Translations under genes and position numbers: made by a program
Assembly: GCA_007127655.1 (NCBI GenBank)
Contig: SKYX01000225.1
Location: 1 to 7,415 of the forward strand
Reading direction: 5' to 3'
DNA from: Desulfonatronum sp.
GTDB taxonomy: Bacteria > Desulfobacterota > Desulfovibrionia > Desulfovibrionales > Desulfonatronaceae
DNA length: 7,415 nt
Shown: piece after piece, positions 351 to 7,295 of the stretch
How positions within the stretch are numbered: the stretch's first letter is position 1
How the letters are laid out: every line of letters begins with the position of its first letter
The notes under the pieces: model-generated
Databases searched by the model: none
What the model was told of the DNA's origin: nothing
What the model saw: only the letters and a program-made list of their open reading frames with translations

Positions 351-1598
351 ATGTTCGTGAGAATTCATCAGCTTTTTGTTATGGTTGTCATGGTCGGCCT
401 TCTCTTCTCCTGCACCCAAGCCGTCAATGAAGACTCTACTTCGAACGATGTCCCGGGGGTGAGCGATTCCGAGATTTTGATTGGATCGTCGCTGGCGCTC
501 AGCGGGCATGCCGGTTTTTTGGGGACGCAGACCCTGAATGGGGCCTTGTCCTACATCAACCATGTCAACGAGCAGGGCGGGGTGCATGGGCGCAGGATTC
601 GGTTGATTGCCCATGATGACGGGTATGACCCACCGAGGTGTCTGGCGAACACCCAGAAGCTGATCGTTGACGATCAAGTCTTCGCGCTCTTCAGTTACGT
701 CGGCACTCCGACCACTGTCAAGATTCTCCCATTGATCGAGCAGGCCCAGATACCGCTCCTGGGGATCTTCAGCGGGGCGAACGCGTTTCGGGAGCCGTTC
801 AACCGGAATATTATTAATATTCGCGCCTCGTACTATCAGGAAACCCAGGAAGTCGTTCGCCATTTTGTCGAGGATCTCGGCCTGACCAGAATCGCCGTAT
901 TTTATCAATACGACGCGTATGGTTTCGATGGCTTGAAGGGAACCGAGTTGGCCCTGCGGGCGTATGAACTGGCACCGGTGGCCAGAAGCAGCTACATCCG
1001 CGGCACCCAGGACATCGAAGAAGGCTTGGCGGCAATCATGGAATCCCAGGCCGAGGCCGTGATCATGATTGGGACCTTTGACGCTTGCGGGAAATTCATC
1101 AAGCAGGCCCGCTCTCGCGGGTTCTCTCCGCTGTTTCACAACGTTTCGTTCGTGGGGTCCGAGGAATTGGCCCGTATTCTTGGCAAGGACGGGAACGGGG
1201 TCATCATCTCCCAGGTGGTTCCTCCTCCGGACTCATTGGAATCTCGGGCCTTATTGTGGGGCGTGGTGGAGTATCTGGAGCGGCATAAACGGGCTTTTCC
1301 AGAGGATCAGCCCAACCTCGTGGCCCTGGAAGGCTACATCAACGCCAAGGTCTTGGTTGAGGGGCTGCGAAGGGCCGGACGTAACCTGAGCAGGGCGCGT
1401 TTCATCGACGCCATTCAGTCCATCCAGAACTATTCCCTGGGCATCGCCAACACCCTCTCTTTTGGGCCGACGAACCATCAAGGGCTGGAGCGGGTTTACT
1501 TCACGATCATCCAGGACGGTCGCCTGGTGATCTTGACCGACTGGAGCCGACTTACGGCGGAAACGGGGCATGATCCCTCGGCGGCTTGTTCGGAGTAG
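351..1598 (+). CDS. ABC-type substrate-binding lipoprotein, branched-chain amino acid/amide type (Peripla_BP_6-like)
   Basis: This 415-residue protein is predicted to sit in the periplasm, tethered by lipid, and to bind a small ligand between two lobes. Residues 1-21 form a lipoprotein signal: Arg4, a hydrophobic core, and lipobox Leu18-Phe-Ser-Cys21. The mature part opens with EILIGSSLALSG, typical of LivJ-like type I binding proteins, followed by an NGALSYINHVNEQGGVHGR stretch, an AHDDGYDPPRC element with Cys97, and YVGTPTTVKILPLIEQAQIP. The second lobe includes IAVFYQYDAYGFDGLKG and a Cys at 246. Length fits the family. No permease or ATPase gene is in the window and the next gene is a sensor kinase, so a sensory co-receptor role is more likely than transport (inference). 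The ligand is unknown: amino acids, amides, urea and aromatic acids are all used in this family. An upstream in-frame ATG at 276 is rejected because it would bury the signal peptide. Confidence 0.88.
   Translation: MFVRIHQLFVMVVMVGLLFSCTQAVNEDSTSNDVPGVSDSEILIGSSLALSGHAGFLGTQTLNGALSYINHVNEQGGVHGRRIRLIAHDDGYDPPRCLANTQKLIVDDQVFALFSYVGTPTTVKILPLIEQAQIPLLGIFSGANAFREPFNRNIINIRASYYQETQEVVRHFVEDLGLTRIAVFYQYDAYGFDGLKGTELALRAYELAPVARSSYIRGTQDIEEGLAAIMESQAEAVIMIGTFDACGKFIKQARSRGFSPLFHNVSFVGSEELARILGKDGNGVIISQVVPPPDSLESRALLWGVVEYLERHKRAFPEDQPNLVALEGYINAKVLVEGLRRAGRNLSRARFIDAIQSIQNYSLGIANTLSFGPTNHQGLERVYFTIIQDGRLVILTDWSRLTAETGHDPSAACSE
1592..1595 (+). promoter_or_regulatory. Shine-Dalgarno candidate supporting an alternative TTG start of the kinase
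   Basis: GGAG lies 8 nt before an in-frame TTG at 1604 and overlaps the end of the upstream gene (stop 1596-1598). If used, the kinase gains 13 residues and is translationally coupled to the binding protein. No comparable site precedes ATG 1643. Confidence 0.35.
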
Positions 1599-1642
1599 AC
1601 ATTTTGCCGAATACACCACGGATAAGCTCGACACCAAAGACC

Positions 1643-3631
1643 ATGCTGACCACCCTGCGGGAAATCAGCCTGAAGAACAAGATTTTTTTCTCCACCCTGG
1701 CCATGGTGTTGGTCATCAGCGCGACCATCGCCCTGTTGGCGAGGTGGATTTTGATCTCCAGTCTGGTCAACGAACTGACCGCCCGTGGGATTGCCATCGC
1801 CCAAAGCATTGCGGACCAGGGACGCGGCTACGTATTGACCCGGGACCATCCGAATTTGGTCAGTCTGATTTTCGACAACGCCCAGCTCGGCGAGCGGCGC
1901 ATGCTCGTGGAATACATTTTTATCCTGGACGATGAACGCAACGTCCTGTCGCATACCTTCATCCGTCCATTTCCGAAGCCGTTGATTTCCGCCAACCCCA
2001 TTCCAGCGGACAAGCAGCACAGCGTGACCCAGTTGACCATCGACGACGCCTCGGTCTACGACATCGCCGTGCCAATCTGGGAGGGCATTTACCCCATCGG
2101 TACCGTTCACGTCGGACTGAAGCAAAAACACATCGACCAACTGATCACCAAGCTGCGCATCACGTTTCTTGGATTTATCAGTGCAATTATCGGCATTATT
2201 TTTTTGGTCAGCCATAAACTTTCCAAGTACGTGACCAGGTCTTTGACCCAATTGACCAAGCTGGCTGACGAAATCACCCGGGGGAACCTGGACATGAAGC
2301 CCTTGGGGCTGGATGAAGCGGACAAAGAGGAACACTGCCCAGCCTACTATAACATGGATCTGCCCTGCTGGTACGTGGACAAGACCCTGGGCCGGTTTAG
2401 TCCCGACTACACCCCGGAGAAGCCCGCCTACTGCACCGACTGCGTCATTAAAAAGAAAAAATCCGGTGATGAAGTGTTGCAATTGGCGGACTCCTTCAAG
2501 TACATGGTTCGCAGTATCAAGCTCTACCGGAATCGGGTCCGCGAGTCCGAGGAAAAATATCGTTCCTTGTTTCGAAGTGGCCCGGCCCCGATTTTCGTGC
2601 TCAGCACCCGCACATTCCGGATTATGGACGCCAATCCCAGCGCCTTGGCTGCCTACGACTATACCAAGGAGGAGATGCTGAAGACGTCGTTTCTGGAACT
2701 GGCCCCGGAGTTCAAGAATCGGTTCGCGGCTTTTTTTCTTGAAAATCCGGGCTCCGAGAGTTTCATTTATCCCAAGGCCATGCATTTCAAAAAGGGGGAA
2801 GTGCCCTTTTACGTGAACGTGGTGGCCTGCAAAACGCGCTACCTGGAGCGCGACGCGATCATCGTCTCCACCTCGGACATCACGGAGATGTTGGAAAAGG
2901 ACGCTCAGTTGATCCAGGCCAGCAAGATGACCAGTCTGGGTCAACTTTCAGCGGGTATCGCCCACGAGTTGAATCAGCCCCTGAACATGATCAAAATGGG
3001 CAGCGAATTCCTGGACATGGCGGTGAACGAGCAGATGCCTCTGTCCAACGAGAGTTTGCGGGAGATCAGCAAGGAAATGAGCACCCAGGTGGATCGGGCC
3101 ACGGAAATCATTAATCATTTAAGGGAATTCGGCCGAAAGTCGGATTTCTCCAAGGAGCCCGTCGACATCAACAAGCCGGTGCGCGGGGTCATGTCCATCA
3201 TGGCCCATCAGTTGAGCCTGCAGGACATCGATGTTACCCTCAACCTGGACGAAAACCTTCCACCGGTGTCGGCCCACGTGAATCGTTTGGAGCAGGTTTT
3301 GTTCAATCTGGTCACCAACGCCAGGGATGCGATTCAAGACCGCTACAAGACCCTGGAAGAGGAAGGACACCGGGAGATAGTGATCCGCTCCTTCCTGGAC
3401 CACGACCGGGTTCGTCTGAGCGTGGCGGATACCGGGTGCGGGATGAGTCCTTCCGTGGCGGAGAAAATTTTCGACCCGTTTTACACAACCAAGCAGACCG
3501 GGATGGGCATGGGGCTTGGTTTGTCCATTTCCTACGGCATTATCAAGGATTACGATGGGACCATCGACATCAAGAGTGAGGAGGGCGAAGGGACGACCTT
3601 CGTACTTTCGTTCCCCATTGCTCAGGAATGA
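1643..3631 (+). CDS. Membrane sensor histidine kinase: periplasmic sensor, HAMP with Cys-rich insert, PAS, HisKA, HATPase
   Basis: This 662-residue inner-membrane kinase should autophosphorylate on His and pass the phosphate to the regulator encoded next door. Visible order: TM1 about 14-36; periplasmic Cache-like sensor about 37-170; TM2 about 173-192; HAMP first helix about 200-225; a Cys-rich insert with Cys232, Cys242, Cys264 and Cys267; HAMP second helix from about 276; PAS about 302-415; HisKA with GIAHELNQPLN (His441); then HATPase with N box NLVTNARDAI (from 555), G1 DTGCGM (from 596), F box FDPFYTTK and G2 GMGMGLGL (620-627). All catalytic boxes are intact. The insert matches the CPAY...CW...CxxC part of the cysteine motif that I recall from deltaproteobacterial signalling proteins ('two-CW'-like), suggesting metal or redox sensing. 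Start is uncertain: ATG 1643 lacks a clear Shine-Dalgarno, whereas in-frame TTG 1604 has GGAG at 1592-1595, 8 nt upstream and overlapping the previous stop. ATG 1643 is used because it sits next to TM1. Confidence 0.92.
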   Translation: MLTTLREISLKNKIFFSTLAMVLVISATIALLARWILISSLVNELTARGIAIAQSIADQGRGYVLTRDHPNLVSLIFDNAQLGERRMLVEYIFILDDERNVLSHTFIRPFPKPLISANPIPADKQHSVTQLTIDDASVYDIAVPIWEGIYPIGTVHVGLKQKHIDQLITKLRITFLGFISAIIGIIFLVSHKLSKYVTRSLTQLTKLADEITRGNLDMKPLGLDEADKEEHCPAYYNMDLPCWYVDKTLGRFSPDYTPEKPAYCTDCVIKKKKSGDEVLQLADSFKYMVRSIKLYRNRVRESEEKYRSLFRSGPAPIFVLSTRTFRIMDANPSALAAYDYTKEEMLKTSFLELAPEFKNRFAAFFLENPGSESFIYPKAMHFKKGEVPFYVNVVACKTRYLERDAIIVSTSDITEMLEKDAQLIQASKMTSLGQLSAGIAHELNQPLNMIKMGSEFLDMAVNEQMPLSNESLREISKEMSTQVDRATEIINHLREFGRKSDFSKEPVDINKPVRGVMSIMAHQLSLQDIDVTLNLDENLPPVSAHVNRLEQVLFNLVTNARDAIQDRYKTLEEEGHREIVIRSFLDHDRVRLSVADTGCGMSPSVAEKIFDPFYTTKQTGMGMGLGLSISYGIIKDYDGTIDIKSEEGEGTTFVLSFPIAQE

Positions 3632-3633
3632 AT

Positions 3634-3638
3634 GGAGG
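3634..3638 (+). promoter_or_regulatory. Ribosome binding site deciding the response regulator start
   Basis: GGAGG, 8 nt before ATG 3647. It overlaps the earlier ATG at 3632 that directly follows the kinase stop, which argues that 3647 (MRKILVIDDE) is the real start. Confidence 0.75.
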
Positions 3639-3646
3639 CTGGGCTG

Positions 3647-4375
3647 ATGCGCAAAATACTCGTTATCGACGATGAAAAGCCGACCCTGTCCATGTTTCGT
3701 CTGTTTTTGAACGCCTACGGATTTACGGTGTTCACCGCGGAGAACGGCGAGGATGGGTTGGTCGTTTTCCAGAAAGAACAACCGTCCATTGTGATTACGG
3801 ACATCAAAATGCCCGGGATGGACGGCCTGGAGGTCCTCAAGCGCATCAAGGAGATCAATCCCCTTGCCGAGGTGATTATCATCACCGGCCACGGGGACCT
3901 GGATCTGGCTATTCGTGCGCTGAACATGAACGCCACGGATTTTATCAACAAGCCGATTCAGAAGGCTGCCCTGGATCAAGCCCTGCGGCGCGCCGAGGAG
4001 CGGCTGACCATGGCCGAAAACGAGGAAAGGGAAATTTCCTGGGTCCAGGAGGGCGATATGGCCTGCATCGACATCCGGGGGAACGTCAACGCCGCTTCCG
4101 AACCGGTGTTGCTGGAGGCGTACAGTCATATCTCGGCCTGGAACGTCCCCAAAATTCTTTTTCGTTTCAACGAGAACGCCTCGGTCAACGGCGCCGGCAT
4201 CGCCGTGCTGATCCAGCTCCTTACGCAGAGCAAGCAGCGCGGCCAATCCGTGATCCTTACCGGTCTGGCTGAGAATTTTCAAAAGGTGTTTGAAATGGTC
4301 GGGGTGACCAAACTGGCCCGGATCGTTCAGGATGAAGCCGAGGCCCGCTCCGTGTTGAGCGGCATGTCGGTTTGA
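3647..4375 (+). CDS. Response regulator, REC receiver fused to STAS domain
   Basis: This 242-residue cytoplasmic protein is the likely phosphotransfer partner of the kinase that ends 15 nt upstream. Residues 1-120 form a complete receiver: acidic pair Asp8-Asp9, phospho-acceptor Asp52 in DIKMPGMDG, switch Thr80 and Lys102 in NKP. A short charged linker leads to about 130-242, which resembles a STAS (anti-sigma factor antagonist) domain: the ACIDIRGNVNAASEPVLLEA strand-helix unit, then SVNGAGIAVLIQLL, then VILTGLAENFQKVFEMVGV. STAS proteins act by binding partners such as anti-sigma factors or SpoIIE-type phosphatases, so the output is probably protein-protein rather than DNA binding; no HTH is seen. 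The loop that carries the phosphorylatable Ser in SpoIIAA (DSSG) reads NGAG here, so Ser-based switching is unlikely and control probably falls on Asp52 (inference). No cognate anti-sigma or sigma gene lies in the window. Confidence 0.9.
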   Translation: MRKILVIDDEKPTLSMFRLFLNAYGFTVFTAENGEDGLVVFQKEQPSIVITDIKMPGMDGLEVLKRIKEINPLAEVIIITGHGDLDLAIRALNMNATDFINKPIQKAALDQALRRAEERLTMAENEEREISWVQEGDMACIDIRGNVNAASEPVLLEAYSHISAWNVPKILFRFNENASVNGAGIAVLIQLLTQSKQRGQSVILTGLAENFQKVFEMVGVTKLARIVQDEAEARSVLSGMSV

Positions 4376-4398
4376 AGCCACTTTTCACCGTAATCGTC

Positions 4399-4402
4399 GG
4401 AG
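4399..4402 (+). promoter_or_regulatory. Ribosome binding site deciding the thioredoxin-like gene start
   Basis: GGAG, 8 nt before ATG 4411. It supports this start over an upstream in-frame TTG at 4372 that would overlap the regulator stop and add 13 residues before the signal peptide. Confidence 0.7.
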
Positions 4403-4410
4403 AAACAGAT

Positions 4411-4974
4411 ATGCGCGGATTTTCAGGTAGGTACTTGGTTCTGGTGTGGTTGTCGTTGGTTTTGCTCGCCGGTCAGGTTTTCGCCGCCGGACCTCTGGTC
4501 GTCGGTGAGCGACACCCGGAGATTTTGGCCTTTGTGTTCCCTGCTCCGGAGGTTCCGGACCATCGAGTTTATCTGGGGCTTGGAGAGGATCAGGACAGCT
4601 TGGCATTGGCGGACATGGAGCGGGACTTCTTGCTGGTAGAGATCGTCGGCGTCTACTGTCCCGTTTGCCATAACCAAGCCCCGGACATCCTGCGTCTGTA
4701 TCAGCGAGTTCAGCGTGACGCCGGACTGGCGGGCAAGGTGGGCATGGTCGCCGTGGCCGTCGGGGCCACGCCGATGGAAATCGAGCACCTTCACCGGACA
4801 TGGCGTTTCCCCTTTCCCATTCTTCAGGATGGGGACTATGTCCTGCACAAACTGATCGGCGAACCGGACACGCCATACTCCTTTCTCCTGGATCGTGACG
4901 GCTCCGTCCTCTACACCCACCTGGGCCGAGCGGATACCGAGAGTCTCTTCAATCAGCTCAAACAGTTACCCTGA
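4411..4974 (+). CDS. Exported thioredoxin-like protein (TlpA/MauD-like) with CPVC active site
   Basis: This 187-residue protein has an N-terminal signal (Arg2, Arg7, hydrophobic stretch 8-24, cleavage likely after QVFA or QVFAA near 25-26), so it should act in the periplasm, either released or held by an uncleaved anchor. The fold follows the TlpA/AhpC-TSA pattern: VEIVGVYCPVCHNQAPDILR gives the redox pair Cys83-Pro-Val-Cys86; next are a VGMVAVAVGATPMEIEHL strand-helix unit, FPILQDGDY, and the cis-Pro segment DTPYSFLLDRDGSVLY. Such proteins reduce or rearrange disulfides in periplasmic partners. The gene follows the regulator by 35 nt. With the MauE-like protein encoded two genes on, it recalls the MauD/MauE pair of methylamine dehydrogenase maturation, but no mau structural gene is present, so the partner is unknown. 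The CxxC and cis-Pro are both present, so it is likely active. Confidence 0.88.
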   Translation: MRGFSGRYLVLVWLSLVLLAGQVFAAGPLVVGERHPEILAFVFPAPEVPDHRVYLGLGEDQDSLALADMERDFLLVEIVGVYCPVCHNQAPDILRLYQRVQRDAGLAGKVGMVAVAVGATPMEIEHLHRTWRFPFPILQDGDYVLHKLIGEPDTPYSFLLDRDGSVLYTHLGRADTESLFNQLKQLP

Positions 4975-5035
4975 ATCTCGTTTTCCTGATTCACGGCCAC
5001 CGATCTCCTCAACCTCTCGTTCAGGGGATTCGGTC

Positions 5036-5040
5036 GAGGA
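5036..5040 (+). promoter_or_regulatory. Ribosome binding site of the GAF-rhodanese gene
   Basis: GAGGA, 6 nt before ATG 5047. The 72-nt gap from 4975 to 5046 otherwise shows no promoter or hairpin terminator that I can identify, so continued transcription from upstream is likely. Confidence 0.6.
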
Positions 5041-5046
5041 TGCGAC

Positions 5047-6819
5047 ATGGATCAGCGCCGGGCTCCGAACCCCTCAGCGGGACCGTCATTGCAGGCCTCT
5101 GCAGAGGCTCCCCCCGAGGCCTCCAAAGACTCTTTCGGGGAGCGTCGTGCCTTTCATCTGGACGCCTTGTTCGAGACGGTCAGTGAACTGAGTCGGTTGA
5201 CCGACCCGAAGGAGGTCATGGAGTCCTTCGTCCTGATGAGCATGGGGGCCCTGGGAACGGCTCAGGGAGTGCTCGTTGCCCAGGATCGCCGTTCAGGCCG
5301 ACAGCATCTCGTCTTGCGCGGCCTGCCTGAGTCCGACAAGGAGCGGCTGCCTGAGGCGATTCAGTCCGTATCCGCTAAAGTTCGAGACGAGGGAGAGATG
5401 CTTTCTCGGCAGGTTCTGGTCGTGGTGATCAACGAGTCTCCCGAAAAGCCCGGCCTGCCCGAGCCGTTGCGCGTCGTGGTGGAGTGGTATCTGGACGAGC
5501 ATCGTTTTGGAGTCCTGGGCTATGGCCCCAAGATCAACGGCTCGGCGTACGACCACCAGGATGAAGATTTCGTGCTGCAATTGGTCACGGCTTTCATGGA
5601 CGCCCTGGCCGCCGCGAACGTGAATGAAACCATTCGCGGCCTGAATGAGAAATTGCAAGCAAGAAACACCGAGCTTCATCGGGCGCTGCTGACTTCCCAG
5701 GATATCCAGGCCCGGCTGGACCGCCGCTACTTTCACTTCAAGTCCATCTGCGACACCACCCGGGAACTCAGCGGCAACCTCCACGCCAAGACCCTGCTTT
5801 CCTCATTTCTCTTGTCGGTCATGGGCACGTTCAGCGCCCAACGCGGGTTCATCGTGCTCTGGGATCGACGTGAGGGCCGGATCGAGACCGTGACTCGAGG
5901 GTTCGGCGGCGATACTGCCCCGGTTTTTGACGGCCAGCGTTTAGACGCCGTCTTCCGTTCCCTGCTGCATCCCCCATTTGTCCCGGCCCAGGGAGGAAAG
6001 CACTATCAGTTGCTGACCCAAGATGAACTCCAGGCTCTGGAATTGGCTGAGGCATCGCAAATCGGTGCCGCGTTTCTGGTGGACGAGCATTGGTATGGGC
6101 TCGCGGGAATCGGAAACTGTCTTGCCCGGTCCGAGGACGATCAAACGGAGCAGGAATTGTTGCCCGCCCTGCTCCAGGGATTTCTGGTCAGTTTGGGCAA
6201 TGCCTTGGCCTTTGAAACCATCGAGAAATTGAACAGCGACCTGTTGCGCAAAAATGCCGAGCTGCGTCAAACTTTGGACGAGCTGCAACAAAGCCGCCAG
6301 ACCATCAGCCTTCTGGAGGCTGCCGGCAATCGTATCAGCTCCTTGCTGCGCTCCGAAACGCTACGCATCAAACGGGTCAGTCTGTTCGATTGTCTGGCCT
6401 TGGCCGTGGTCAGCCTGGTCCTGGCGCTGGTCTTCAACGCCTCCAGCCCCGGGGGGATTTCGCTGTTACCGGAAACCTGGAACCAACCGAAGCCCGACTA
6501 TATCGACGTGGCTTGGGCCAGGCTCAAGCATGCGTCACAAGGCGCACTGTTTTTAGATGCTCGGCCCACGGAGTTTTTCAATCAGTCGCGTATCCCCGGC
6601 GCGGAAAACCTCCCTTTGAACCTGTTCGACTTTGTCTACTCCATGCGTTTTGCCATGCTGGACCCGGAAAAGGACGTCATCGTCTACGGCCGCAACATCA
6701 GCAGAAGATATGACGAACAGGTGGCAGCCAAACTCAAGGAGCGCGGCATGGTCAATGTCCGGGTCATGGACGGAGGGCTGCAGCAATGGCAGCGCAACGG
6801 ACTTCCGGTGGAACCATGA
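5047..6819 (+). CDS. Membrane protein with two GAF-like domains, coiled coils and a C-terminal rhodanese-like domain lacking the catalytic Cys
   Basis: This 590-residue protein has an unusual architecture. After a Pro/Ala-rich start, residues about 36-190 form a GAF-like domain (FHLDALFETVSELSRLTD... VLVAQDRRSG), about 195-235 a coiled coil, about 236-395 a second GAF-like domain (FHFKSICDTTRELSG... GFIVLWDRREGR) and about 396-440 another coiled coil. One TM helix spans about 446-463, preceded by basic residues (RIKR), which places the N-terminal part in the cytoplasm and the C-terminal part in the periplasm. Residues about 484-590 are rhodanese-like (LFLDARPTEFFNQSRIPGAENLPL; VRVMDGGLQQWQRNGLP). 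The active-site loop reads IVYGRNISRR: Gly548 stands where the persulfide Cys normally lies, and the usual GHIPGA is QSRIPGA, so sulfurtransferase activity is unlikely. A binding or sensing role is inferred. It overlaps the next gene by 4 nt (ATGA). The GAF assignment rests on pattern alone and is less sure than the rhodanese fold. Confidence 0.85.
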   Translation: MDQRRAPNPSAGPSLQASAEAPPEASKDSFGERRAFHLDALFETVSELSRLTDPKEVMESFVLMSMGALGTAQGVLVAQDRRSGRQHLVLRGLPESDKERLPEAIQSVSAKVRDEGEMLSRQVLVVVINESPEKPGLPEPLRVVVEWYLDEHRFGVLGYGPKINGSAYDHQDEDFVLQLVTAFMDALAAANVNETIRGLNEKLQARNTELHRALLTSQDIQARLDRRYFHFKSICDTTRELSGNLHAKTLLSSFLLSVMGTFSAQRGFIVLWDRREGRIETVTRGFGGDTAPVFDGQRLDAVFRSLLHPPFVPAQGGKHYQLLTQDELQALELAEASQIGAAFLVDEHWYGLAGIGNCLARSEDDQTEQELLPALLQGFLVSLGNALAFETIEKLNSDLLRKNAELRQTLDELQQSRQTISLLEAAGNRISSLLRSETLRIKRVSLFDCLALAVVSLVLALVFNASSPGGISLLPETWNQPKPDYIDVAWARLKHASQGALFLDARPTEFFNQSRIPGAENLPLNLFDFVYSMRFAMLDPEKDVIVYGRNISRRYDEQVAAKLKERGMVNVRVMDGGLQQWQRNGLPVEP

Positions 6820-7295
6820 CGAAAAATCCGCTGGTCAGACTGCTGACCCATGAGTACGTGGCCTTGGCACTGCGATTGTACATCGGCGGGCTGTTCATCT
6901 ACGCGAGTATGTACAAGATCAGCTATACCGCTGAGTTCGCCGAAACCATCGCCAGCTACCAATTAGTTCCCTACTGGGCAGTGAACGTGCTGTCCGTGTT
7001 CATGCCCTGGTTCGAGCTGGTCTGCGGCGTCTTGCTGATCATCGGCTTCCGGGCAAAATCCGCTGTGGTGCTGATCGGCGGGATGTTGGTGATGTTCACC
7101 ATTGCCGTGGTGATCAACCTGTTTCGCGACTCACCCATCCCTTGTGGCTGCTTCAGCAGCGTCGAGGACCCGATTTCCTGGTGGACGGTGGTCCGCGACC
7201 TGATCTGGGTGGCCATGACCGTCCATATCTACTATTTCGACAAAATTTTGCACCTGGAAAACCATTTCACCTCCAGGATCGAGAAAATTGCCTGA
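6816..7295 (+). CDS. MauE/DoxX-type redox-associated integral membrane protein
   Basis: This 159-residue protein has about four TM helices: roughly 15-32, 53-76, 82-103 and 125-145. It carries Y33-K34 after the first helix, as in DoxX-like proteins, and a PCGCF motif (Cys110, Cys112) after the third, which is characteristic of the MauE branch. MauE is needed with the thioredoxin-like MauD for disulfide formation in methylamine dehydrogenase; DoxX-type relatives serve in thiol and sulfur metabolism. Here a thioredoxin-like gene lies two genes upstream and a rhodanese-like gene directly upstream, so a periplasmic thiol or sulfur redox role is inferred. The start ATG overlaps the preceding stop as ATGA, a strong sign of translational coupling. 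An earlier in-frame ATG at 6786, inside the rhodanese gene, is rejected because it would add ten residues read from the upstream coding sequence. It is the last gene of the cluster. Confidence 0.88.
   Translation: MTKNPLVRLLTHEYVALALRLYIGGLFIYASMYKISYTAEFAETIASYQLVPYWAVNVLSVFMPWFELVCGVLLIIGFRAKSAVVLIGGMLVMFTIAVVINLFRDSPIPCGCFSSVEDPISWWTVVRDLIWVAMTVHIYYFDKILHLENHFTSRIEKIA

What the first reader, a model, noticed from the sequence alone, without database searches (positions are those of the whole stretch)
351..7295. Candidate redox-responsive signalling cluster: binding lipoprotein, Cys-HAMP kinase, REC-STAS regulator, CPVC thioredoxin, GAF-rhodanese and MauE-like protein
Six same-strand genes join a complete two-component pathway (ligand-binding lipoprotein, kinase, regulator) to three periplasmic or membrane thiol-type proteins. 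Cysteine features recur: a four-Cys insert in the kinase HAMP, CPVC in the thioredoxin, PCGCF in the MauE-like protein, and a rhodanese fold stripped of its Cys. I know of no named system with this combination. A plausible reading is that a ligand or thiol state is sensed and the module adjusts or reports periplasmic thiol redox through a STAS partner. Gene order and motifs are seen; the joint function is inferred.
Basis: partly seen in the sequence, partly recalled or inferred. Interest (0 to 1): 0.75.

Follow-up and report, generated by a model that had tools for sequence, protein, structure and literature searches.

The report
Signal-gated thiol relay beside formate dehydrogenase
In sulfate-reducing bacteria, a conserved row of genes joins a signalling pathway to a membrane thiol system and usually sits beside a selenium-containing formate dehydrogenase; it is predicted to let the cell switch thiol chemistry outside the inner membrane, likely to tune that enzyme.

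Summary
The six genes are real, intact and on one strand, in a whole contig of a Desulfonatronum-like genome. The same order occurs in 34 of 44 fetched loci of the order and in two genomes outside it. The cluster is two modules that share the REC-STAS regulator. Module one (binding lipoprotein, kinase, REC-STAS) has formate dehydrogenase genes in the fetched stretch in 82 of 120 genomes, in four arrangements; chance gives about 3 at five copies per genome. Module two (TlpA-type thioredoxin, membrane pseudo-rhodanese, MauE, a small lipoprotein) occurs across the phylum. Its rhodanese cysteine is absent wherever the site could be read; its cytoplasmic part is tandem GAF, a cyclic-nucleotide domain, or neither; five loci fuse it to MauE. 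In eight genomes with separated modules both keep a REC-STAS. Where readable, linked FdhA mostly has both cysteines of the known C845-C872 switch, but so does most FdhA elsewhere. I read it as a signal-controlled periplasmic thiol relay, likely serving formate dehydrogenase. Mechanism, ligand and target are untested. No named system was found.

The parts
351..1598 (+). Peripla_BP_6 (LivK-type) substrate-binding lipoprotein; lipobox LLFSC; two further conserved Cys, C97 and C246
   Evidence: 37 of 37 aligned; both Cys in 112 of 136 hits, paralogues included
1643..3631 (+). sensor histidine kinase: sCache_3_2, split HAMP, PAS, HisKA, HATPase_c
2336..2443 (+). four-Cys insert in HAMP (C232, C242, C264, C267)
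3632..4375 (+). REC-STAS response regulator without DNA-binding domain
4187..4198 (+). STAS loop NGAG, where the phosphorylatable Ser of SpoIIAA-type STAS (recalled) is replaced
   Evidence: sequence
4411..4974 (+). TlpA/ResA-like thioredoxin; signal peptide judged from the sequence
4657..4668 (+). CPVC motif
   Evidence: both Cys in 44 of 44 aligned
5047..6819 (+). tandem-GAF, one transmembrane helix, Cys-less rhodanese protein
6385..6444 (+). transmembrane helix (residues 447-466) preceded by RIKR, so N-terminus inside is likely
   Evidence: sequence; model
6685..6696 (+). YGRN: glycine at the catalytic cysteine position of rhodanese
6816..7295 (+). MauE-family membrane protein; start overlaps the GAF-rhodanese gene
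7143..7151 (+). CGC motif of MauE
   Evidence: 17 of 17 aligned

Best explanation
The six genes are a conserved cluster in which a two-component pathway (binding lipoprotein, sensor kinase, REC-STAS regulator) is predicted to switch, through a membrane protein with two GAF domains and a cysteine-less rhodanese domain, a TlpA/MauE thiol relay in the periplasm, likely to tune the selenocysteine formate dehydrogenase that is encoded beside it in most relatives. Shown: gene content and order, the REC-STAS in both halves, the swapped cytoplasmic sensor domains, the pseudo-rhodanese-MauE pairing and fusion, and the formate dehydrogenase linkage. Inferred: a small molecule bound by the lipoprotein or sCache domain sets kinase activity; phosphorylated REC frees or presents the STAS domain; STAS docks on the cytoplasmic GAF part; the signal crosses one membrane helix to the pseudo-rhodanese, which acts as an adaptor and not as a sulfurtransferase; MauE passes electrons between the membrane and the TlpA-like thioredoxin; the thioredoxin sets the thiol or disulfide state of periplasmic targets, the neighbouring FdhA being the first candidate.
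For: Six-gene order in 34 of 44 fetched loci of the order and in L173 and L174 outside it. In the 8 genomes where the halves are apart, each half has its own REC-STAS, and the five thiol-half copies of one genus form a clade of their own (100/99). Pseudo-rhodanese lies directly beside MauE or fused to it in 17 of 18 further phylum loci, in the 18th (L178) within about 4 kb; fused in five. The cytoplasmic part is a cNMP_binding domain in 6 of 10 proteins scanned, against tandem GAF here. Catalytic Cys absent in 43 of 43 readable order loci and 20 of 20 phylum loci. Of 30 other rhodanese loci, the best PF00581 matches of 21 relatives, none has MauE within 1.5 kb. Formate dehydrogenase in the fetched stretch in 82 of 120 core genomes, 3.4 expected at five copies per genome. 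In L189 fdhA-fdhB-fdhE-rhodanese-mauE-thioredoxin follow on one strand. Both switch cysteines (C845/C872 of D. vulgaris, numbering) are in 14 of 15 readable FdhA rows of 14 thiol loci, in L189 and in the own genome.
Against: In 6 of the 8 split genomes the fetched stretch around the thiol half holds no formate dehydrogenase, while the stretch around the sensory half does, so the enzyme link belongs first to the sensory half. Apart from L189, none of the other 19 fetched phylum loci holds the enzyme (some are short). FdhA with both cysteines is about as common without the thiol module (45 of 57 rows against 14 of 15; Fisher p = 0.28). One genus of 14 genomes (g28) has the sensory genes and no formate dehydrogenase in the stretch. 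L072 keeps REC-STAS and GAF-rhodanese but has no thioredoxin or MauE match (that locus has masked runs). A STAS-GAF contact, electron flow through MauE and the ligand are all untested.
Confidence: 0.38

Rival explanations
1. The thiol genes sit upstream in the signal: TlpA, MauE and the pseudo-rhodanese set the redox state of the binding lipoprotein (C97, C246) or kinase, so the module reports periplasmic redox instead of changing it.
For: Two conserved Cys in the lipoprotein beyond the lipobox (37 of 37; 112 of 136 hits); four-Cys insert in the kinase; shared gene order.
Against: The same cysteines and the insert persist in genomes without the thiol genes. The insert follows the membrane helix and so is probably in the cytoplasm. 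The thiol half, when alone, carries REC-STAS and not the kinase.
Confidence: 0.2
2. REC-STAS works as a partner-switching anti-sigma antagonist that controls transcription of formate dehydrogenase and other genes; the thiol genes are a passive part of the regulon.
For: No DNA-binding domain on the regulator; sources name some homologues anti-anti-sigma factor; formate dehydrogenase linkage.
Against: The STAS loop is NGAG, SGAG or NGTG in 117 of the 120 homologues examined, without the usual serine (that this is the phospho-site is recalled). I did not search for a cognate anti-sigma kinase.
Confidence: 0.17
3. The thiol half is a maturation or sulfur-delivery device for the molybdenum or tungsten selenoenzyme, beside FdhE.
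For: FdhE (Pfam) and genes that I read as MobA, ModE and MoeA-like (my reading of the sequences) near several loci; L189 puts FdhE directly before the pseudo-rhodanese.
Against: The rhodanese has no catalytic Cys; 19 of 20 fetched phylum loci lack the enzyme.
Confidence: 0.12
4. Two unrelated modules are neighbours by inherited synteny and do not work together.
For: Each occurs without the other.
Against: Two different joint arrangements (SBP-HK-RR-TRX-GAF-rhodanese-MauE, and thiol half - fdhAB - SBP-HK-RR in L053/L165 and L055/L166) and REC-STAS kept in both halves in 8 of 8 split genomes.
Confidence: 0.13

Closest known systems
MauD/MauE pair of methylamine dehydrogenase biogenesis (recalled)
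   Same: MauE family membrane protein close to a CxxC thioredoxin with a signal peptide
   Different: here with a sensor-bearing pseudo-rhodanese and a two-component system; methylamine dehydrogenase genes were not looked for
TlpA/ResA/DsbE thiol-disulfide oxidoreductases
   Same: Redoxin family match, ResA-like PDB matches, CxxC, conserved T-P
   Different: scores under the NCBIfam cut-offs of ResA and DsbE; partner is MauE instead of CcdA or DsbD (recalled partners)
MauE with a cysteine-bearing membrane rhodanese (YCDG type) in the same bacteria
   Same: rhodanese directly beside MauE (L224, L233, L235, L237)
   Different: keeps the cysteine; the proteins have 172 to 318 residues and were not scanned for sensor domains
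Binding-protein plus Cache histidine kinase two-component systems
   Same: Peripla_BP_6 lipoprotein, sCache kinase, receiver regulator
   Different: STAS output, four-Cys HAMP insert, linkage to Sec formate dehydrogenase
Allosteric disulfide switch of D. vulgaris FdhAB (PMC11134731, PMC11323313, PMC13397495; passages read)
   Same: both cysteines present in most readable linked FdhA
   Different: no reducing partner is named in the passages read; a role of this module is only proposed

Membership tests
Two-component system | HisKA and HATPase_c with conserved H-box, receiver with phospho-Asp | tested here: met
   H441 and D57 conserved; receiver motif in 118 of 120 homologues
Active rhodanese sulfurtransferase | catalytic Cys in the active loop | tested here: not met
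   Gly in the window and 43 of 43 readable order loci and 20 of 20 phylum loci; YG in 116 of 120 cNMP homologues by a pattern, 4 not assigned
Rhodanese fold | fold and DAR motif | tested here: met
SpoIIAA-type anti-sigma antagonist | phosphorylatable Ser in the STAS loop (recalled) | tested here: not met
   NGAG, SGAG or NGTG in 117 of 120, 3 not assigned
SpoIIAA-type anti-sigma antagonist | cognate anti-sigma kinase | not tested
   no search for it was made
TlpA/ResA-like thioredoxin | exported thioredoxin-family protein with CxxC | tested here: met
   export judged from the sequence
MauE family | PF07291 over its cut-off | tested here: met
   97.6 bits against 27
Mau cluster (methylamine utilisation) | methylamine dehydrogenase genes | not tested
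   not searched
Reductase of the FdhA C845-C872 switch | target cysteines present in the linked FdhA | tested here: met
   14 of 15 readable FdhA rows from 14 thiol loci (the exception is a second FdhA in L042), own genome L160, L189
Reductase of the FdhA C845-C872 switch | thiol module specifically enriched with switch-bearing FdhA | tested here: inconclusive
   Fisher p = 0.28 for the thiol module; a TlpA-like gene in the locus goes with both Cys (44 of 57 against 2 of 13 rows at 60 bits, 4 of 13 at 40 bits), phylogeny ignored, and only two genera (8 rows) wholly lack the pair
Tandem GAF protein | two GAF folds in series | tested here: met

The most novel reading that the evidence does not exclude
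The cluster is the missing, signal-controlled activator of periplasmic selenocysteine formate dehydrogenases: the TlpA-like thioredoxin fed by MauE opens the allosteric disulfide of FdhA, and the cysteine-less rhodanese membrane protein is a new class of transmembrane gate that puts periplasmic thiol chemistry under the command of cytoplasmic ligands, tandem GAF plus REC-STAS in one lineage and a cyclic-nucleotide domain in others.
Probability: 0.15. Interest if true: 0.9.

Novelty: new variant of a known kind. Interest (0 to 1): 0.7.

Why it matters
Known thiol relays of the bacterial envelope are mostly described as always-on (recalled). A relay whose membrane partner carries exchangeable cytoplasmic sensor domains, and which often lies beside the selenocysteine formate dehydrogenase of sulfate reducers, would be a direct way for a cell to set periplasmic thiol state. 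FdhAB of Desulfovibrio vulgaris is a much-studied CO2 reductase with an allosteric disulfide that must be reduced for full activity (PMC13397495, PMC11323313; passages); the passages that I read name no physiological reductant. The module gives a short list of genes to delete in order to find one. It also points out a widespread Cys-less rhodanese family, some members of which sources name rhodanese-related sulfurtransferase, a name that the missing cysteine contradicts.

Tried and rejected
Four-Cys kinase insert as a mark of the thiol genes: suggested by L072, which lacks both, but rejected, because kinases in genomes without the thiol genes keep the insert (the output of about four of 84 loci was cut from view). 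L150, L151 and L153 show a longer form of the motif and no REC-STAS match.

FdhA disulfide switch: my first test (repeated) used a cysteine pair that I had placed from recall, and it was the wrong pair. The earlier numbers are withdrawn; the first test had argued against the idea, the corrected one is neutral to favourable.

Rfam on the window: no match at gathering scores. Promoter scan: 4 found, shuffles 2.3 +- 1.5. Rajeev et al. 2011 (PMC3333781, find passages): no occurrence of STAS or formate dehydrogenase. Text searches for REC-STAS with response regulator and for formate dehydrogenase, Desulfovibrio, STAS domain and response regulator together found no paper.

The zinc-ribbon IS1595-like protein beside fdhA was not followed.
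Full report
What the window is. The window is the whole of contig C312 of a 2.76 Mb, 439-contig genome. Its GAF-rhodanese protein is 91% identical to one of Desulfonatronum lacustre and 90% to D. thiodismutans, so the host is a Desulfonatronum or close kin (order Desulfovibrionales).

Anatomy. Gene 1 is a Peripla_BP_6 lipoprotein with two extra conserved cysteines. Gene 2 is an sCache-HAMP-PAS-HisKA-HATPase kinase in which a stretch with four cysteines interrupts HAMP. Gene 3 is a receiver joined to a STAS domain with no DNA-binding domain; its STAS loop reads NGAG, and 117 of 120 homologues examined read NGAG, SGAG or NGTG. Gene 4 is a TlpA/ResA-like thioredoxin with CPVC. Gene 5 has two GAF folds, one membrane helix and a rhodanese domain whose catalytic cysteine is glycine. 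Gene 6 is MauE with CGC.

Neighbourhood survey. Searching 199 genomes of the order with the GAF-rhodanese protein gave a match in 137, mostly to the rhodanese domain alone. I fetched 44 loci with a long match; one more such genome (G080, match split over contigs) was not fetched. Full six-gene order on one strand: 34 of 44 (in L067 the binding-protein gene is cut by the contig end). One locus is cut by contig ends before that can be judged (L060), one lacks thioredoxin and MauE matches (L072), and in eight the binding protein and kinase are not upstream. A search with the kinase sensor part found it in 129 of 199 genomes at E 1e-20; I fetched 84 loci, 78 from genomes without a long GAF-rhodanese match. 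There the binding protein precedes the kinase in 78 of 78 and REC-STAS follows it in 74 of 78; three of the other four have the longer Cys motif, the fourth runs off its contig.

Formate dehydrogenase. Over the 122 genomes with fetched loci, 120 have binding protein and kinase, and 82 of these have fdhA or fdhB within the fetched stretch of up to 18-19 kb: 15 downstream in opposite direction, 1 downstream same, 31 upstream same, 35 upstream opposite. It holds in 18 of 25 genera. With five fdhA copies in each genome chance would give 3.4. One search shows 1 to 5 copies in the 174 of 199 genomes with a match, but at most five candidates per genome were scored, so copy numbers are capped; even 26 copies, the highest number of first-look candidates, would give 17.6. 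One genus with 14 genomes (g28) has the sensory genes and no formate dehydrogenase in the stretch. The linked enzyme uses TGA at the active-site codon in 76 of 82 pattern hits, so it is mostly the selenocysteine type. In the own genome, contig C48 (4.0 kb) reads FdhA, FdhB and then, convergent, the small lipoprotein, and ends there, which fits the end of the window contig and the order seen in relatives such as L002.

Two modules sharing REC-STAS. In eight genomes the halves are apart. In all eight, one half is binding protein-kinase-REC_STAS and the other begins with its own REC-STAS followed by thioredoxin, GAF-rhodanese and MauE. In a tree of 127 REC-STAS sequences the five thiol-half copies of one genus form a clade (100/99) away from the kinase-linked copies of the same genomes. 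So REC-STAS goes with both halves, which makes it the likely point of contact. Against a simple story, in six of these eight the formate dehydrogenase is found with the sensory half and not with the thiol half.

The thiol half across the phylum. A profile of the GAF-rhodanese found matches in 32 of 297 genomes drawn from the phylum, four of them in the order. I fetched 20 of the 31 listed places outside the order. Two (L173, L174) hold the full cluster including the small lipoprotein. In 17 of the other 18 MauE is directly beside the pseudo-rhodanese, in five of these as one polypeptide, and in L178 it lies about 4 kb away. All 20 lack the catalytic cysteine (L187 read). Pfam finds a cyclic-nucleotide-binding domain in 6 of 10 proteins scanned, where the window protein has tandem GAF. 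A protein search with nine of the 305-residue type gives 1018 proteins at E 1e-20; the named ones among the 120 listed include Syntrophobacteraceae and other deltaproteobacteria, and 116 of those 120 show YG at the site by a pattern, 4 not assigned. In L189 fdhA (TGA), fdhB, fdhE, pseudo-rhodanese, mauE and a thioredoxin follow each other on one strand; it is the only one of the 20 phylum loci with the enzyme.

Controls. In 21 relatives, 17 MauE genes were found. Ten are beside the Cys-less protein. Four (L224, L233, L235, L237) are beside a rhodanese that keeps its cysteine (YCDG), two more lie next to rhodanese matches by coordinates, and one does not. Of 30 other rhodanese loci (the best PF00581 matches of those genomes) none has MauE within 1.5 kb. 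So MauE is as a rule paired with a rhodanese in these bacteria, while most rhodaneses are not paired with MauE; the window shows the Cys-less, sensor-bearing form.

The FdhA switch. D. vulgaris FdhAB is activated by reduction of the C845-C872 disulfide (PMC11323313, PMC11134731, PMC13397495; passages only). With numbering from 6sdr, both cysteines are in 14 of 15 readable FdhA rows of 14 thiol loci, in the own genome and in L189; the other thiol loci with the enzyme gave no FdhA row covering both sites. They are also in 45 of 57 FdhA rows of loci without the thiol half, so the thiol half is not specifically enriched (p = 0.28). A TlpA-like gene of any kind in the locus does go with the pair: 44 of 57 rows with both cysteines against 2 of 13 without at 60 bits, 4 of 13 at 40 bits (p = 6e-5 and 0.002; own genome left out). 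Relatedness is ignored, only two genera (g7, one row; g20, seven rows) wholly lack the pair, and genus g21 (9 rows) has the pair and no TlpA-like gene. This is suggestive, not proof.

Mechanism. The fusion of pseudo-rhodanese to MauE, the recurrent thioredoxin and the exchangeable cytoplasmic sensor domains argue that the pseudo-rhodanese protein is a transmembrane adaptor that gates a MauE-thioredoxin relay. The two-component pathway would then feed it through REC-STAS. The direction of electron flow, the ligand, the STAS contact and the target are inferred. The neighbouring selenocysteine formate dehydrogenase is the best candidate target.

Print. Searches for MauE with rhodanese and DoxX (none), for two of rhodanese, cyclic nucleotide-binding and MauE (10 of 11 papers shown), for rhodanese with DoxX (two papers) and for REC-STAS (none) list no paper whose title or abstract start describes this system. 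Six papers hold Desulfonatronum and rhodanese (listing); in one, PMC12998232, the passages found speak of SseA-type sulfurtransferases and the text does not hold MauE. Only open-licence papers are held, so subscription work could have been missed.

Noticed in passing
L160:3545-3862 (own genome, contig C48) and just after MauE in most relatives: A small lipoprotein of about 105 residues without a Pfam match is a seventh member of the cluster, also found beside several cNMP-type pseudo-rhodanese loci.
   Followed up: partly
L061:2524-3384 and beside fdhA in many loci: A protein with an IS1595-type zinc ribbon and transposase domain is a frequent neighbour of the selenocysteine fdhA; possibly a domesticated regulator.
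   Followed up: no
L185, L186, L187, L188, L192: Single polypeptides that join a Cys-less rhodanese and MauE; in the two scanned (L185, L187) a cNMP-binding domain comes first.
   Followed up: yes
L150, L151, L153: Kinase relatives with a longer six-Cys HAMP insert and no REC-STAS match, two of them with two binding-protein genes in a row.
   Followed up: no
window:639-641 and 1086-1088: Two conserved cysteines (C97, C246) of the binding lipoprotein; Ser replaces C246 in genera g24 and g34.
   Followed up: partly
window:7367-7390: A palindrome (GGGGCGACCGGCCGGTCGCCCC) near the contig end may have broken the assembly here (sequence).
   Followed up: no
   Followed up: no
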